Positions 3,039-29,756 of a stretch of 29,756 nucleotides of DNA are shown here, in pieces. The position numbers and the translations under genes are program-made. Below the pieces are notes generated by a model. The model was not told the DNA's origin and searched no databases. It worked only from the letters and a program-made list of their open reading frames with translations. The stretch's first letter is position 1. The number at the start of each line of letters is the position of its first letter. This DNA is from a virus: positions 1 through 29,756 of the IMG/VR virus record IMGVR_UViG_3300025264_000075; one strand, 5' to 3'.

Positions 3039-3075
3039 CGATCACCTCTCTTTTTTTTCTTTATATACTCTTACT

Positions 3076-3110
3076 CCCCCCTACGCCCCCCTTTAGGGGG
3101 GGCTAGGGGG
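3076..3110 (-). promoter_or_regulatory. Long C/G hairpin upstream of the sigma-4 gene
   Basis: A C-rich arm (3076-3091) and a G-rich arm (3096-3110) pair around a four-base TTTA loop, with one small mismatch near the CTA/TAG step. In the minus-strand transcript the hairpin is followed by an A-rich stretch, not a U tract, and then by the ribosome site of the sigma-4 gene. It is therefore not a canonical intrinsic terminator in either direction. It may block read-through by another route, or control translation or RNA stability. Confidence 0.7.
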
Positions 3111-3172
3111 AAGAGTTAACAGTTAACTCTTAAGAGTTCTTAAGAGTAACCGTTAACACGTTCGCTGTTAAC
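3111..3172. promoter_or_regulatory. Cluster of GTTAAC palindromes (putative operators)
   Basis: Four GTTAAC hexamers occur in about 60 bases (3115-3120, 3122-3127, 3152-3157, 3167-3172). The first two form a perfect 10-bp inverted repeat, AAGAGTTAAC around a single A. Two CTTAAGAG repeats lie at 3129-3136 and 3139-3146. The block lies between the 78-residue gene and the sigma-4 gene. The symmetry suggests binding of a dimeric regulator; the regulator is unknown. Confidence 0.6.
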
Positions 3173-8362: not shown

Positions 8363-8464
8363 TCAGATCGTATCGGGTCGGTACGTCTCGCTCCTTCCAA
8401 TCTCAGATTCCATGCCGATGGCCCGAACCACCGGCCCGGTTGAGACCCGCCATACTGGCTGCAT
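8363..8464 (-). CDS. Possible 33-residue ORF in an otherwise empty gap
   Basis: The gap 8343-8479 holds one small ORF, beginning MQPVWRVSTG and ending TYRPDTI. It lacks a recognisable ribosome site. It might be translated by coupling, or be chance; the Trp/Arg content gives no family hint. Confidence 0.25.
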   Translation of the reverse strand: MQPVWRVSTGPVVRAIGMESEIGRSETYRPDTI

Positions 8465-8479
8465 GGCGACGCTTCGGGC

Positions 8480-8686
8480 TTAACTCCTAGACGCCTGCGC
8501 GGCCTGGATGTGTTCGCAACCTGGGCGAGTTGTGTCGCCTGAGTAGCCGTCCACGCTGCATACCCAACCGAATCGGTATTCGTACACGACCACCGATTGA
8601 TCTGTCGTGGTCTTACCGAGCGCAATGGGCTGCGTTTCGTCCCGCACCAGATACGTTCCCTCGATTGGACATGTGACGACGGTCAT
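8480..8686 (-). CDS. Small hypothetical protein with C-terminal Cys/His residues
   Basis: The ATG at 8686 overlaps the stop of the Cys-rich gene (ATGA) and has GGAG upstream; 68 residues. The first half is beta-rich (MTVVTCPIEGTYLVRD ... SVVVYEYRFGWVC). The second half has a Cys and then a CEH triplet (GCEHIQAAQ), a pattern reminiscent of the second half of a SWIM-type zinc motif, although the first CxC is missing. Function unknown. Confidence 0.65.
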   Translation of the reverse strand: MTVVTCPIEGTYLVRDETQPIALGKTTTDQSVVVYEYRFGWVCSVDGYSGDTTRPGCEHIQAAQASRS

Positions 8687-9137: not shown

Positions 9138-9191
9138 CGGCAGTCCTTTGGACTTCTGCCGTGGGGCTTTCATCGGGGCCGCGTGGCCCCG
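9138..9191 (-). other. Two adjacent intercistronic hairpins
   Basis: The first (9138-9161) pairs CGGCAG with CTGCCG, with a further AGTCC/GGACT pairing inside. The second (9174-9191) pairs CGGGGCC with GGCCCCG around a four-base loop. Both fall in the gap between the stop of the 110-residue gene (9209) and the start at 9113. Neither is followed by a U tract on the transcribed strand. Confidence 0.65.
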
Positions 9192-9208
9192 ACCCATCAG
9201 CCGTCTTG

Positions 9209-9796: not shown

Positions 9797-9864
9797 CCCG
9801 GTTGCCATCCGGGTCTCGTCAGGCGGGATGCTTCCCGCGACCAGGGCGGGGCCGAAGCCCCGCC
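9797..9864 (-). other. Three tandem hairpins, the last with a UUCG tetraloop
   Basis: In the 110-base gap 9763-9872 three stems follow one another: CCCGG/CCGGG (9797-9813), GCGGGA/TCCCGC (9823-9838), and GGCGGGGC/GCCCCGCC (9845-9864). In the minus-strand RNA the last stem closes a UUCG tetraloop, an unusually stable fold. No U tract follows. The gap lies between a Cys-rich gene and the 62-residue gene. Confidence 0.75.
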
Positions 9865-9872
9865 GGTATGGT

Positions 9873-10025
9873 TTATATCTGGAGGACGTCGGCCCGGTTG
9901 ACCGCCCACCACTTGTCGTCGTCGGCCTTGGCCTCGCACAGGAAGCACTCGCCACATGTGGGATTGTCCTCGTCGCAGGCTCCAGCGCACTCGTCGCACA
10001 TGCAGTTCTTCAGGTGGTCGTCCAT
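9873..10025 (-). CDS. Cys-rich mini-protein, 50 residues
   Basis: The ATG at 10025 has AAGGAG eight bases upstream and overlaps the stop of the preceding gene. Seven cysteines lie in the first 30 residues (C8, C10, C13, C17, C24, C27, C30), in the pattern CMCDECAGAC...CGECFLC. This suggests one or two zinc knuckles; the rest is acidic and ends in WWAVNRADVLQI. The function is unknown. It is the second gene of the early transcript. Confidence 0.75.
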   Translation of the reverse strand: MDDHLKNCMCDECAGACDEDNPTCGECFLCEAKADDDKWWAVNRADVLQI

Positions 10026-10162
10026 TATCTCGTCTCCTTATGGGAGTTACACCAGTAGGTCTTCACGAAGTTTCGGCCTGGGACGTGATCCGGTATCAGC
10101 GTGATCGTCGCTCGTTTTGAGCATGGCCGGTAATCAATCACGGCATCGCATTTCTTCGCCAT
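10025..10162 (-). CDS. First early gene: 45-residue Cys/His protein
   Basis: The ATG at 10162 has AAGGAG six bases upstream and is the first start after the strong promoter at 10344-10372. The basic protein has Cys at 5, 14 and 39 and His at 42, which could form one zinc site. An ITLIPDHVPG strand-turn lies in the middle. As the first early product it may act on host functions, but no family is recognised. Confidence 0.7.
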   Translation of the reverse strand: MAKKCDAVIDYRPCSKRATITLIPDHVPGRNFVKTYWCNSHKETR

Positions 10163-10187
10163 GTCGTTCTCCTTGTGTGGGTTTCTA

Positions 10188-10255
10188 GGTGCTACTGGCA
10201 CCCTCGTCAGACCGGTCGATTCCGGTGACCCTACCGTGACCAGTTCACTCTGGTC
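10188..10255 (-). promoter_or_regulatory. Structured early leader with three hairpins
   Basis: Between the promoter and the first early gene the RNA leader (about 10336 to 10163) can fold three short perfect hairpins: GACCAG/CTGGTC (10238-10255), ACCGG/CCGGT (10211-10226) and GGTGC/GCACC (10188-10202). The last ends about 20 bases before the ribosome site. They may protect the 5' end, act as anti-termination (nut/put-like) sites, or regulate translation. I do not recognise a known riboswitch. Confidence 0.55.
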
Positions 10256-10343
10256 TTAGCGCATCCGGGCGATTCGGCCGTTAGTCCGTTTCGTTCCCGC
10301 CATCTTGCCGTGAGCGGTATGTGTTATGTGTTTGTTAGATATA

Positions 10344-10372
10344 AATATAGTCCTATGGTTTACCGTTGTCAA
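10344..10372 (-). promoter_or_regulatory. Near-consensus sigma-70 early promoter
   Basis: Minus strand TTGACA (10367-10372) is followed after exactly 17 bases by TATATT (10344-10349), and an AT-rich run follows. This is a perfect -35 box with a five-of-six -10 box at optimal spacing. It points at the small early genes from 10162 leftward. The predicted start is near 10337. Confidence 0.82.
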
Positions 10373-10399
10373 CAGGTTTTACAACGAATCTGATTAGAC

Positions 10400-10448
10400 T
10401 TTGCCTGATTTGCCCGAAAACAGGCAAAAACAGGGCAAATCAGGCAAA
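10400..10448. repeat. Perfect 16-bp inverted repeat with CAGGCAAA iterations
   Basis: TTTGCCTGATTTGCCC (10400-10415) is repeated as its exact reverse complement at 10433-10448, around a 17-base spacer that contains another CAGGCAAA. It begins 28 bp upstream of the early -35 box. It could be an operator, an activator site or part of an origin. It is not followed by a U tract, so it is a poor terminator. Confidence 0.75.
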
Positions 10449-10587
10449 AGTGCCCCCAAACGCCCATCCTTATTCTTTAAGAAGGGGCAGACGGCAGACC
10501 GGATAGGGGCAAACGTCCAGAGCGGCACGGGATCAGGAGGGTCGGCGTGGTAGTCCTACTTTGCAGGGCGAGCGGCGTCTAAGATGA
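10449..10587. other. Non-coding stretch with no assigned element
   Basis: This middle part of the 565-base gene-free region (10163-10727) has no convincing ORF on either strand. I see only a short TTCTT-T-AAGAA symmetry near 10473-10483 and no repeat or promoter that I would defend. Confidence 0.5.
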
Positions 10588-10627
10588 ATCCGTTAACGGA
10601 TTGACCGTGGAGTATCCGTTACGGTCA
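10588..10627. promoter_or_regulatory. GTTAAC palindrome and adjacent inverted repeat
   Basis: The perfect 14-bp palindrome ATCCGTTAACGGAT is at 10588-10601. The 21 bases from 10588 to 10608 recur exactly at 27686-27706. Here TGACCGT (10602-10608) also pairs with ACGGTCA (10621-10627) around 12 bases. The copy lies between the late-module hairpin and the early promoter. Confidence 0.65.
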
Positions 10628-10659
10628 GAATAGGGGATAGAGCCAGGGCGTGAATAAGT

Positions 10660-10703
10660 AGAGCCGAGAATCGCGGGAGGCTATGTGCCGCGACCTCGGC
10701 TCT
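10660..10703 (-). terminator. Long hairpin at the end of the late module
   Basis: AGAGCCGAG (10660-10668) pairs with CTCGGCTCT (10695-10703), and TCGCGG (10671-10676) with CCGCGA (10688-10693), giving 15 pairs around a small internal loop. It starts 25 bases past the stop of the last late gene (10728). The RNA beyond it has only a weak U content (CUACUUAUUC), so termination may be partial or protein-assisted. Confidence 0.6.
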
Positions 10704-10727
10704 GAGAAGGGAGACCCACCGAGTATA

Positions 10728-27743: not shown

Positions 27744-28942
27744 ACCCCGACCCCTGCCGCGCCTGTACGCCCATATACCGCCAGGGCCAGAGCCATCACG
27801 CAGTCGTCGTGCATCCCGTCCGGTGCTGAGTACCTGACGCCCGTCCTGGTGTATTCGTAGGCGAAGGCATCCAACTCGGAGACGATCACGCCCTGCGGAT
27901 ACCTGACCTCCCCGGTCTGGATCGCCATCGCCAAGCCCTCCATGAGTCGCTGCTTCGATGGGGAGGAGAAGTGGTAGCCCTCCACGTTCGACAGTTCCCG
28001 CTGGAGCCGTTCGACGATAGGATCGCCGACCCCGGTTGAGTCCACGATGGCAGACGTCGCACCGATCTCTTGGGCCAGCCGCTTGACGGTTTCCTCCCAG
28101 GGCCACTGGTATCGGTCGAACCGGCAGACGGCTCCCGTGGCGTCGAGGCCGATCACGACCGTCCAGTCCACGCTCTTCGCCAGGTCGACCCCGTAGACGA
28201 CCGGAGGATCGCCGGAGACGTCACCAATGCAGGCTCGGATAGCTTCCTGCCCGAATGGGTTCCCGCCGTCGTCGGATGGTTCGGCGAAGTACAACTCGCG
28301 GAACACGTTCTCCGGTAGTTGCCGTTGAGCCTGCGCGACTTCCTCCGAGTCAACGATCCCCGCGTCGATAGCGTCCGAAGCCGTCAGCTTCGCGTATGTC
28401 CACCCAGGCTCCCCGCCCTCGGCCCGACGCGCCAGGGCATACGCCCAGTTCCGGCGGCCCTTGACGTTGCCGATGATCCGCACCGGGCCACGGGTCGCGG
28501 TCAGGGTCGAACGTACCGCATGCCATGCTTCCTCCCGCATCCGCGTCGCCTCGTCCAGCACGGCGGCGTAGACGTCCTCGCCGTAGAGGTTGTCCGGCTT
28601 CTCGGCAGACCTGAACGAGATGATCGCCCCGTTCACCAGCGTGATCGTTAGCTCGGATTCGTTGGCGGTGTACAGGGTGTCGTCCAGGCCGCGCTTGAGC
28701 CGCCGATAGGCGACCTTGGCCTGCGGATAGACCGGGCTGATCCACCAGAACGCCTGACCCCGCAGCCCGCCCATAGCCTGCTCCAGAATCCACGCGATGC
28801 AGGCGACAGTCTTGCCGCACTTCGTACTGCCCTCGATGATCCCGTAGCGGTCAGGGCTGAATATCGCCGCCTGTTGTTTCGGGTAGAGGCTGGGTCTCCG
28901 ATATATCACCGTCGGGGCCGTTGCCGTTGAGGTAGTTGCCAC
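27737..28942 (-). CDS. terL: Terminase large subunit
   Basis: The 401-residue protein starts at a GTG with a GAGG site, 92 bases inside the end of terS. The ATPase part has YPKQQ near 20-24, Walker A GSTKCGKT at 38-45 and Walker B AAVLDE at 126-131. The nuclease part has the RNase H-like Asp residues in GVDLAKS (~252) and VDSTGVGD (~301), and a final HDDC motif near 378. This is the standard motor of DNA packaging that also makes the cut. The length of ~400 is short but within the family range. Confidence 0.92.
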   Translation of the reverse strand: MATTSTATAPTVIYRRPSLYPKQQAAIFSPDRYGIIEGSTKCGKTVACIAWILEQAMGGLRGQAFWWISPVYPQAKVAYRRLKRGLDDTLYTANESELTITLVNGAIISFRSAEKPDNLYGEDVYAAVLDEATRMREEAWHAVRSTLTATRGPVRIIGNVKGRRNWAYALARRAEGGEPGWTYAKLTASDAIDAGIVDSEEVAQAQRQLPENVFRELYFAEPSDDGGNPFGQEAIRACIGDVSGDPPVVYGVDLAKSVDWTVVIGLDATGAVCRFDRYQWPWEETVKRLAQEIGATSAIVDSTGVGDPIVERLQRELSNVEGYHFSSPSKQRLMEGLAMAIQTGEVRYPQGVIVSELDAFAYEYTRTGVRYSAPDGMHDDCVMALALAVYGRTGAAGVGVW

Positions 28943-29372
28943 TTGCTGCCTCGATACTGAATGTGACCTCGCCCTGGGTCAGGTTGATCGCCCGCTGGTC
29001 GATGGTGATTAACGGTTCCTTGGGAATCACGCCGTTGATCTCGCTGATCCGGTGCATGATCGACATCACCATCTTCGTCGCGGCCTCGTCACCGGCGAGA
29101 GCCTGGGGCCACCACCGGGACAGGAGCGTCGTGTACCGCTCCATCTGTAGCCCGCGTATCTGGTCGGCCATGCCGCTGTACTTCTCGGCGAGGTCGTTGA
29201 GGACCCGCTTGATCGACCGGTGAACCTGGGACTTGTCGACGCCCAGGGTCTCCCCGATCTGCTTCTCGGTCGCACCGCCTTTGTAAAGCTCCAGCATCTG
29301 ATACCGGCGCAGTTCAAACTCCGCCTTCTTCTGAGGCGTCGGATATAGCCCCGGCTGCTTGCGTTTTGCCAT
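28851..29372 (-). CDS. terS: Terminase small subunit (right copy)
   Basis: This 173-residue copy starts at ATG 29372 in the ATGA overlap with the methylase. HTH and helical core are as in the left copy: DKSQVHRSIKRVLNDLAEK. Differences from the left copy include Arg/Lys and Trp/Phe near residues 16-19, a few in the core, and ten of the last 19 residues. The overlap with terL constrains that end. If the genome is circular this and the left copy are alleles of one locus. Confidence 0.88.
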   Translation of the reverse strand: MAKRKQPGLYPTPQKKAEFELRRYQMLELYKGGATEKQIGETLGVDKSQVHRSIKRVLNDLAEKYSGMADQIRGLQMERYTTLLSRWWPQALAGDEAATKMVMSIMHRISEINGVIPKEPLITIDQRAINLTQGEVTFSIEAASGNYLNGNGPDGDISETQPLPETTGGDIQP

Positions 29373-29756
29373 CAGACCTTCACCGCCTTCTGCCCGGTGT
29401 AATCTTCCCACCGCTTGATCGCGACGTCGCAATACCTCGGTTCAATCTCCATCGCATAGCACCGACGGCCCAGACGCTCGGCTGCGATGATGGTCGTGCC
29501 GGAACCGACGAAGGGGTCAACCGTTAATTCGTCCTGTGCTGATAGGTACGCCATGAATGACTGAGGTATCAATATGGGGAAGTTCGCTGGATGCGCCTTA
29601 TGTTTTCTCGTGTCCAAATTAATTTGTGCGCCCGCTTTGCTCCTGCCAGTATCTAACTCCCTCCCTGCGTTTGTTTGATGCACCTCAAAAACATCGTTCT
29701 CCAATAGCCCAGTACGGGTAGTCTTCTGTGATGGGATGAACCCCTGACGGCTAAAT
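29372..29756 (-). CDS. DNA methyltransferase, C-terminal fragment (right copy)
   Basis: The frame is open to the right edge and gives about 128 residues with motif I (DPFVGSGTT) intact. Five of roughly nine substitutions relative to the left copy over this part change the residue (for example Glu/Ala and Met/Ile near motif I). The upstream part, with motif IV and the ParB-like domain, lies outside the window. Its stop overlaps the terS start. Confidence 0.88.
   Translation of the reverse strand, partial: FSRQGFIPSQKTTRTGLLENDVFEVHQTNAGRELDTGRSKAGAQINLDTRKHKAHPANFPILIPQSFMAYLSAQDELTVDPFVGSGTTIIAAERLGRRCYAMEIEPRYCDVAIKRWEDYTGQKAVKV

What the first reader, a model, noticed from the sequence alone, without database searches (positions are those of the whole stretch)
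10163..10727. 565-base intergenic control region with promoter, 16-bp inverted repeat, palindromes and terminator-like hairpin
The single large gene-free stretch joins the end of the late module to the early promoter. TTGACA-N17-TATATT, the TTTGCCTGATTTGCCC inverted repeat and the GTTAAC palindrome lie within 260 bases. Besides promoter control it could contain the replication origin or an attachment site.
Basis: partly seen in the sequence, partly recalled or inferred. Interest (0 to 1): 0.55.

Follow-up and report, generated by a model that had tools for sequence, protein, structure and literature searches.

The report
Phage control region encodes self-cutting RNA
The gap is the switch point between a marine phage's late and early genes, and its early transcript appears to begin with a conserved folded RNA that a built-in hammerhead ribozyme cuts off, with further ribozymes (one with its parts in an order not described in nature in the papers we searched) between the following genes.

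Summary
The 565-base gap (10163-10727) is real and is read on the minus strand. In order it holds a late-end hairpin, a 16-bp GTTAAC palindrome, a phased repeat array with a perfect 16-bp inverted repeat, and a TTGACA-N17-TATATT promoter. Leader plus hammerhead is 96% identical to relative L010, where the promoter is 43% and the inverted repeat 63%; it recurs with compensatory changes in five other viral contigs. A model built without the window finds both window hammerheads (E about 1e-11). Downstream early gaps hold a second type III hammerhead (9843-9789), a decayed twister-like RNA (9202-9139) and an RNA at 8490-8394 with the pistol core whose pseudoknot hairpin lies downstream instead of upstream, in all three complete copies: apparently a natural circularly permuted pistol. 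Ribozyme clusters in phages are known; the permuted pistol and the leader RNA were not found in print by our searches. Origin or attachment-site roles gain no support. Cleavage itself is inferred, not measured.

The parts
10661..10702 (-). Hairpin at the end of the late module, preceded by CTCCCTTCTC (10713-10704), loop with TAGCCTC; likely late-transcript 3' end or terminator, with a poor U-tract in this phage
   Evidence: TAGCCT loop present at this place in 8 of 8 contigs examined, pyrimidine run upstream in most; L012 and L106 have U-rich tails
10587..10602 (.). 16-bp perfect palindrome AATCCGTTAACGGATT, likely protein-binding site
   Evidence: GTTAAC core with matching flanks in L006, L055, L056 and L106, GTTATC in L010, not found in L054 or L012 (8 contigs)
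10400..10448 (.). Perfect 16-bp inverted repeat plus a third CAGGCAAA in its spacer; half-sites at 10-bp spacing, 28 bp upstream of the -35 box; candidate operator
   Evidence: 63% identity to L010 over these positions, arms not kept
10344..10372 (-). Early promoter TTGACA-N17-TATATT
   Evidence: TTGACR-N17 box at the same place in L010, L054, L055, L056 and L106
10227..10337 (-). Leader RNA from the inferred start (about 10337) to the predicted hammerhead cleavage site (10227/10226): CAAGAUGG, stem A (10299-10266), GAUGCG, stem B (10255-10238)
   Evidence: 96% identity to L010 over 10316-10237; 6 contigs share it, stems A and B with two-sided changes
10179..10231 (-). Type III hammerhead ribozyme motif, variant (one extra A between stem II and GAAA), directly upstream of the RBS of the first early gene
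   Evidence: Descriptor; model R2 built without the window: 45.8 bits, E 1.4e-11; not found by Rfam
10025..10162 (-). First early gene (45 aa, unknown function)
   Evidence: Sequence; no Pfam or PHROG match for the longer GTG-start form 10201-10025
9845..9864 (-). GGCGGGGC-UUCG-GCCCCGCC hairpin immediately upstream of the second hammerhead; would cap the 3' end of the cleaved upstream message
   Evidence: same hairpin ahead of the hammerheads of L054 and L055
9789..9843 (-). Second type III hammerhead motif between early genes; predicted cleavage 9839/9838
   Evidence: Rfam RF00008 31.0 bits, E 3.1e-5 on a 161-base stretch, below the gathering score 48.5; R2 46.9 bits, E 6.4e-12
9139..9202 (-). 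Twister-P5-like RNA, probably decayed (GAG to GAU, UAA to GAA)
   Evidence: Alignment with six twister-P5 or twister-like RNAs of relatives; no Rfam match in the window
8394..8490 (-). Circularly permuted pistol-like RNA: P2, UUAAGCCCGAAGCGU core, P3, GG|GU, P2', then P1 hairpin (8435-8414) whose UUCGGG loop is complementary to CCCGAA of the core; predicted cleavage 8446/8445
   Evidence: the same in L006 and L106, and in L054 up to the contig end

Best explanation
The gap is the late-to-early control junction of a marine siphophage, read on the minus strand. A hairpin ends the late transcript; a repeat array and a palindrome act as binding sites; a sigma-70-type promoter starts the early transcript. 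The transcript begins with a conserved structured leader of about 110 nt and then a type III hammerhead ribozyme ending next to the Shine-Dalgarno sequence of the first early gene. The hammerhead cuts the nascent RNA at 10227/10226, releasing the leader as a discrete RNA with a hairpin near its 3' end and leaving the message with a 5'-OH and a folded 5' end. Further ribozymes in the early gaps (a second hammerhead, a permuted pistol, a decayed twister) would cut the operon transcript between genes, so the early message is diced into units with defined, hairpin-protected ends. Shown: sequence motifs, their conservation, compensatory changes and positions. Inferred: transcription start, cleavage, release, stability effect and any function of the leader.
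For: Leader plus hammerhead 132/137 identical to L010 while promoter 26/60 and inverted repeat 31/49. Two pattern scans of viral contigs gave the same family set: hammerhead-based 4 loci; leader-based 77 stretches including those 4 plus L106. Every helix of the leader and of the nine hammerheads tabulated forms standard pairs, with two-sided changes in stems A, B, I, II and III. Model R2, built from four relatives, finds both window hammerheads at 46.9 and 45.8 bits. Descriptor: 14 distinct hammerheads in 908,344 bases of the family, 2 hits in the reversed control. Relatives carry Rfam-recognised ribozymes in the same operon: twister-P5 in 4 of 51 records, pistol 2, hammerhead III 2, hammerhead II 2. 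Permuted pistol.
Against: No cleavage was measured. The first hammerhead has an extra A next to the core and is missed by Rfam even at E 10; the second is below Rfam's gathering score. The best energy fold of the window's leader region alone is no better than shuffles (z -0.87) and does not show the hammerhead. Ribozymes are confined to a subgroup: 7 of 64 tail-gene relatives with enough downstream sequence have a descriptor hammerhead, two of these being near-identical records; L006 has the early promoter region without leader or hammerhead, and L060 has a terminator and promoter instead. Only six leaders and three complete permuted pistols are known here.
Confidence: 0.8

Rival explanations
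1. The region is mainly a DNA control region (operator plus promoter) and the hammerhead motifs are inactive remnants; the leader is kept for another reason, such as binding a phage antitermination or translation factor.
For: Core irregularities: extra A in W and L010, CUGAACGA in L106 and L055; the leader sits right behind the early promoter as antitermination leaders do (general knowledge).
Against: Hammerhead helices keep pairing while their sequence changes, and the two-sided changes in stem II are frequent; L056 and L054 have intact cores; ribozymes of other classes occupy the neighbouring gaps.
Confidence: 0.15
2. The inverted repeat and phased CAGGCAAA repeats are iterons of a replication origin.
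For: Five half-sites at about 10-bp spacing in an A+T-richer stretch; the phage encodes a RepA-like AAA_25 ATPase.
Against: No skew minimum there; the array is not kept in L010, though L010 is the closest relative over this gap; no initiator gene adjoins it.
Confidence: 0.12
3. The gap holds a phage attachment site.
For: Large non-coding gap at a module border.
Against: No tRNA and no integrase among the proteins scanned; no relative of the tail protein found in 84,980 bacterial and archaeal genomes.
Confidence: 0.03
4. The pistol-like RNA at 8490-8394 is an ordinary pistol with a weak upstream P1, and the downstream hairpin is an unrelated structure.
For: Rfam scores L006 at 38.5 bits with an upstream P1.
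Against: No upstream TTCGGG loop in any of 4 copies; a downstream 8-bp hairpin with exactly that loop in 3 of 3 complete copies, with two-sided changes in P1 and P3; at most 1 of 5000 shuffles reaches 6 bp in each complete copy. Rfam's match in L106 starts at model position 22, that is without P1.
Confidence: 0.12

Closest known systems
Clustered hammerhead ribozymes in prophages (Perreault et al. 2011, PMC3088659, passages read)
   Same: Several hammerheads flank single genes or short blocks in phage DNA and were proposed to cut long phage transcripts; three arrays cleaved in vitro and one in E. coli.
   Different: Here the first ribozyme sits in the 5' leader of the early transcript behind a conserved structured RNA, and related phages carry different classes (hammerhead I, II, III, twister-P5, permuted pistol) in the same operon.
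Pistol ribozyme (RF02679; Harris et al. 2015, PMC4604425, part 1 of 4 read)
   Same: UUA-GC-core, GU cleavage junction, P2, P3, and a P1 loop pairing with the P2-P3 junction.
   Different: P1 comes last instead of first: a circular permutation opened in the P1-P2 junction. A synthetic permuted pistol, opened in stem III, works as a scaffold (Mustafina et al. 2021, seen only as described in PMC10353319 and in the reference list of PMC10201423).
Type III hammerhead (RF00008)
   Same: Topology, CUGANGA and GAAA core, GUC cleavage triplet.
   Different: Extra A beside stem II in the leader copy; scores under Rfam's cut-off.
HK022 put and lambda nut leader elements (recalled, no call)
   Same: Structured RNA right behind an early phage promoter.
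   Different: No sequence similarity tested; here a ribozyme follows.

Membership tests
Hammerhead ribozyme, type III (10231-10179) | CUGANGA, GAAA and UH core in order, three helices closed as in type III | tested here: met
   one extra A between stem II and GAAA
Hammerhead ribozyme, type III (10231-10179) | Score over Rfam RF00008 gathering cut-off | tested here: not met
   No match up to E 10
Hammerhead ribozyme, type III (9843-9789) | Core, helices and Rfam similarity | tested here: met
   Core and helices met; Rfam 31.0 bits, E 3.1e-5
Hammerhead ribozyme, type III (9843-9789) | Score over Rfam RF00008 gathering cut-off of 48.5 bits | tested here: not met
   31.0 bits; no match at the cut-off in the whole window
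Hammerhead ribozyme | Self-cleavage | not testable with these tools
   Needs in vitro transcription
Pistol ribozyme | Core UUA-GC-NAAGCGU, P2, P3, GU junction | tested here: met
   P2 is only 3 bp
Pistol ribozyme | P1 loop pseudoknotted with the P2-P3 junction | tested here: met
   6 of 6 pairs in 3 of 3 complete copies; invariant in the three, so no covariation within the pseudoknot
Pistol ribozyme | Order P1-P2-P3 from 5' to 3' | tested here: not met
   P1 is downstream: permuted variant, works-like claim only
Pistol ribozyme | Rfam match in the window | tested here: not met
   No match in G000
Twister-P5 (9202-9139) | Rfam match and conserved GAG and UAA | tested here: not met
   No match; GAU and GAA instead
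Intrinsic terminator (10661-10702) | G+C-rich hairpin followed by a U-tract | tested here: inconclusive
   Hairpin conserved; tail UACUUAUU; not reported by the terminator scan
Replication origin | Skew switch, conserved iterons | tested here: not met
Attachment site | tRNA-end identity, integrase nearby | tested here: inconclusive
   No tRNA in window, no integrase found; host unknown

The most novel reading that the evidence does not exclude
The early operon is a ribozyme-diced transcript whose first fragment is a new class of conserved phage RNA, either a released small RNA or a sensor domain that controls the adjoining hammerhead (a natural allosteric hammerhead), and which contains the first natural circularly permuted pistol ribozyme.
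Probability: 0.35. Interest if true: 0.85.

Novelty: new variant of a known kind. Interest (0 to 1): 0.62.

Why it matters
Why phages keep self-cleaving ribozymes between genes is an open question. A group of phages in which hammerheads of three topologies, twisters and pistols stand in neighbouring or matching gaps of one early operon suggests that the cut itself is selected, not one ribozyme lineage. A natural circularly permuted pistol would add a third small self-cleaving ribozyme class to the two (hammerhead, twister) listed as naturally circularly permuted in a 2023 paper (PMC10085705, passages read). The leader gives a defined RNA whose release or sensing can be tested directly.

Tried and rejected
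Replication origin from GC skew: no signal at 10400. Attachment site: no tRNA, no integrase. The 16-mer of the inverted repeat in viral contigs: 35 stretches, apparently unrelated contexts, in which only the window showed the inverted pair. DUF932-like protein as bait: 19 stretches matched, no relative confirmed. Tail-protein alignment in bacterial and archaeal genomes: none. Permuted-pistol pattern in the same genomes: 0. Similarity search of 50,697 phage records with the leader-hammerhead and with the permuted pistol: only short chance-level matches (E 0.5 or higher). Energy folding of the leader alone: not better than shuffles for the window, modest for L010. RF00163 (hammerhead I): 0 of 12 records, so the type I hammerheads of L012, L016, L058, L169 and L174 rest on my descriptor alone. 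Weak Rfam hits on the inverted repeat (miRNA families, RAGATH-13) were taken as chance. In one search I misregistered stem B of L056; corrected. An alignment with two hammerheads of another register was discarded. Of the 77 stretches I read only those that the script printed, plus L106; L106 failed that filter because of its inserted core base and was recognised through its tail gene; the rest were not inspected one by one. The descriptor was loosened to accept CUGAACGA after L106 had been seen.

Full report
Setting. The window is a phage record (IMG/VR) with its recognised genes on the minus strand: portal, prohead protease and capsid, tape measure and tail genes down to 10728, then early genes from 10162 downwards, including an AAA_25 (RepA-like) ATPase, a small sigma-70 region 4 protein and a ParB-methylase fusion. 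The gap therefore lies between the end of the late module and the start of the early module, and has to be read on the minus strand.

What the gap holds. From the late side: CTCCCTTCTC and a G+C-rich hairpin with TAGCCTC in its loop (10713-10661); a 16-bp GTTAAC palindrome (10602-10587); an array of CAGGCAAA-like half-sites at about 10-bp spacing including a perfect 16-bp inverted repeat (10448-10400); TTGACA-N17-TATATT (10372-10344); then 180 bases to the ATG at 10162. The inverted repeat is beyond chance (0 of 2000 shuffles).

Comparison. L010, a viral contig with an 88% identical tail protein, covers the whole gap. Identity per element: last late ORF 46%, hairpin 69%, palindrome 82%, inverted repeat 63%, promoter stretch 43%, leader 77/80, hammerhead 55/57. 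So the part of the gap under the strongest constraint is the 5' leader of the early transcript, not the inverted repeat.

The leader and its hammerhead. By eye and by a descriptor 10231-10179 is a type III hammerhead: GGGUC|ACCGG-AAUCGA-CCGGU-CUGACGA-GGGUGC-CAGUA-GCACCU-A-GAAA-CCC. A hammerhead-based pattern scan of viral contigs returned L010, L054, L055 and L056; a separate leader-based pattern returned 77 stretches, among them the same four and a fifth relative, L106, whose core has one extra base. All six have, in the same order, a TTGACR-N17 promoter, CAAGAUGG, stem A, GAUGCG, stem B, hammerhead, Shine-Dalgarno sequence and ATG. Stem A and stem B, and stems I, II and III of nine hammerheads from the window, L010, L054, L055, L056 and L106, keep standard pairs through two-sided changes. 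Model R2, built from L054, L055, L056 and L106 only, finds the window's two hammerheads at 45.8 and 46.9 bits, E 1.4e-11 and 6.4e-12 over 514,225 bases, with rough E-values. Sense-strand copies stand well above the two antisense hits of the same places (about 22 bits) and L174 (21.6 bits). Rfam does not list the leader hammerhead even at E 10 and gives the second one 31.0 bits, below the gathering score.

Other ribozymes of the early operon. Rfam at relaxed threshold found twister-P5 twice in L012 and pistol in L006; hammerhead III and a weak twister-P5 in L054, hammerhead II in L055 and L056, twister-P5 in L057, and twister-P5 twice in L016. Across 51 records: twister-P5 4, pistol 2, hammerhead III 2, hammerhead II 2 with E up to 0.001, of which 2, 1, 0 and 2 are over the cut-off; the window itself has none by these four searches. 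My descriptor adds type I hammerheads in L012, L016, L058, L169 and L174; in all 21 hits, 14 distinct, against 2 in the reversed sequences. Behind the small cysteine-rich gene (W 10025-9873) W has a type III hammerhead, L012, L016 and L058 a type I hammerhead, L057 a twister-like RNA (by alignment, not by Rfam) and L060 a terminator and a promoter. A UUCG-capped hairpin stands directly before the hammerheads ahead of the next gene in W, L054 and L055, as expected if the cut leaves a protected 3' end. Of 64 tail-gene relatives with at least 1500 bases downstream, only 7 records have a descriptor hammerhead, L012 and L016 being near-identical: the system is limited to a subgroup.

The permuted pistol. 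W 8490-8394, L006, L106 and L054 share UUAAGCCCGAAGCGU, P3 and GGGU. None has the pistol's P1 upstream. The three complete copies have, downstream, an 8-bp hairpin whose loop UUCGGG is the exact complement of CCCGAA in the core (at most 1 of 5000 shuffles gave 6 bp or more in each complete copy). L054 shows the hairpin's first strand and its loop, then the contig ends, so its measured stem is 1 bp. In the three complete copies all 25 pairs stand in all 73 cells, four pairs with two-sided changes, against none in any slid control; the pseudoknot itself does not vary. Model R1 (made from those three) finds only these and the truncated L054 at good scores in 95 sources, and nothing more among 44 records searched whole beyond W and L106. 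The published pistol has P1 first and its loop paired with the P2-P3 junction (PMC4604425, part 1 of 4 read; Rfam consensus). Only hammerhead and twister are named as ribozymes with natural circular permutations in PMC10085705 (passages); a designed permuted pistol is described in PMC10353319 (passages). Searches for permuted pistols in the held library listed no natural one; most subscription papers are not held.

Mechanism. Most likely the early RNA starts near 10337, the leader folds, and the hammerhead cuts at 10227/10226. The leader is released, and the message keeps a folded 5'-OH end next to its ribosome-binding site. Further cuts separate early genes. This agrees with the proposal for prophage hammerhead arrays in PMC3088659 (passages), where cleavage was measured. 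Here cleavage, transcription start and effects on stability are inferred. The leader's own role is open: small RNA, sensor for the hammerhead, or antitermination-like element. That the samples are marine, and that the phage is a siphophage, are my inferences from recalled sample numbers and from the tape-measure and tail genes.

The value lies in what was not seen: the RNA.

Noticed in passing
1-1075 and 28682-29756: The window's two ends are 92.6% identical over 1076 columns: the contig seems to run once round a genome unit of about 28.7 kb and end in a related strain's copy of the terminase and methylase region.
   Followed up: partly
8936-8847 (minus): Early gap with three hairpins (one GCGGGGUG-AUGCCA-CACCCCGC), no family match, not seen at this place in L106 or L054; could be another processing element.
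   Followed up: no
10713-10661 (minus) and relatives: The late-end hairpin keeps a TAGCCT loop in 8 contigs, and a CTCCCTTCTC-like run upstream in most, more than a plain terminator needs.
   Followed up: partly
L055 around 462 (minus) and L106 around 2107: Hammerheads with CUGAACGA, one extra A inside the otherwise invariant core, in two phages of this group; activity unknown.
   Followed up: no
7002-6893 (minus): Gap with TATAAT and small hairpins ahead of the HTH gene, possibly a second early promoter.
   Followed up: no
L054 104-1 (minus): The permuted pistol of L054 carries a long extension with its own hairpin inside P3.
   Followed up: no
window 3070-3172: Strong G+C-rich inverted repeat in the gap between two early genes, near which Rfam lists weak sRNA and miRNA hits; L005 and L057 give similar weak hits.
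   Followed up: no
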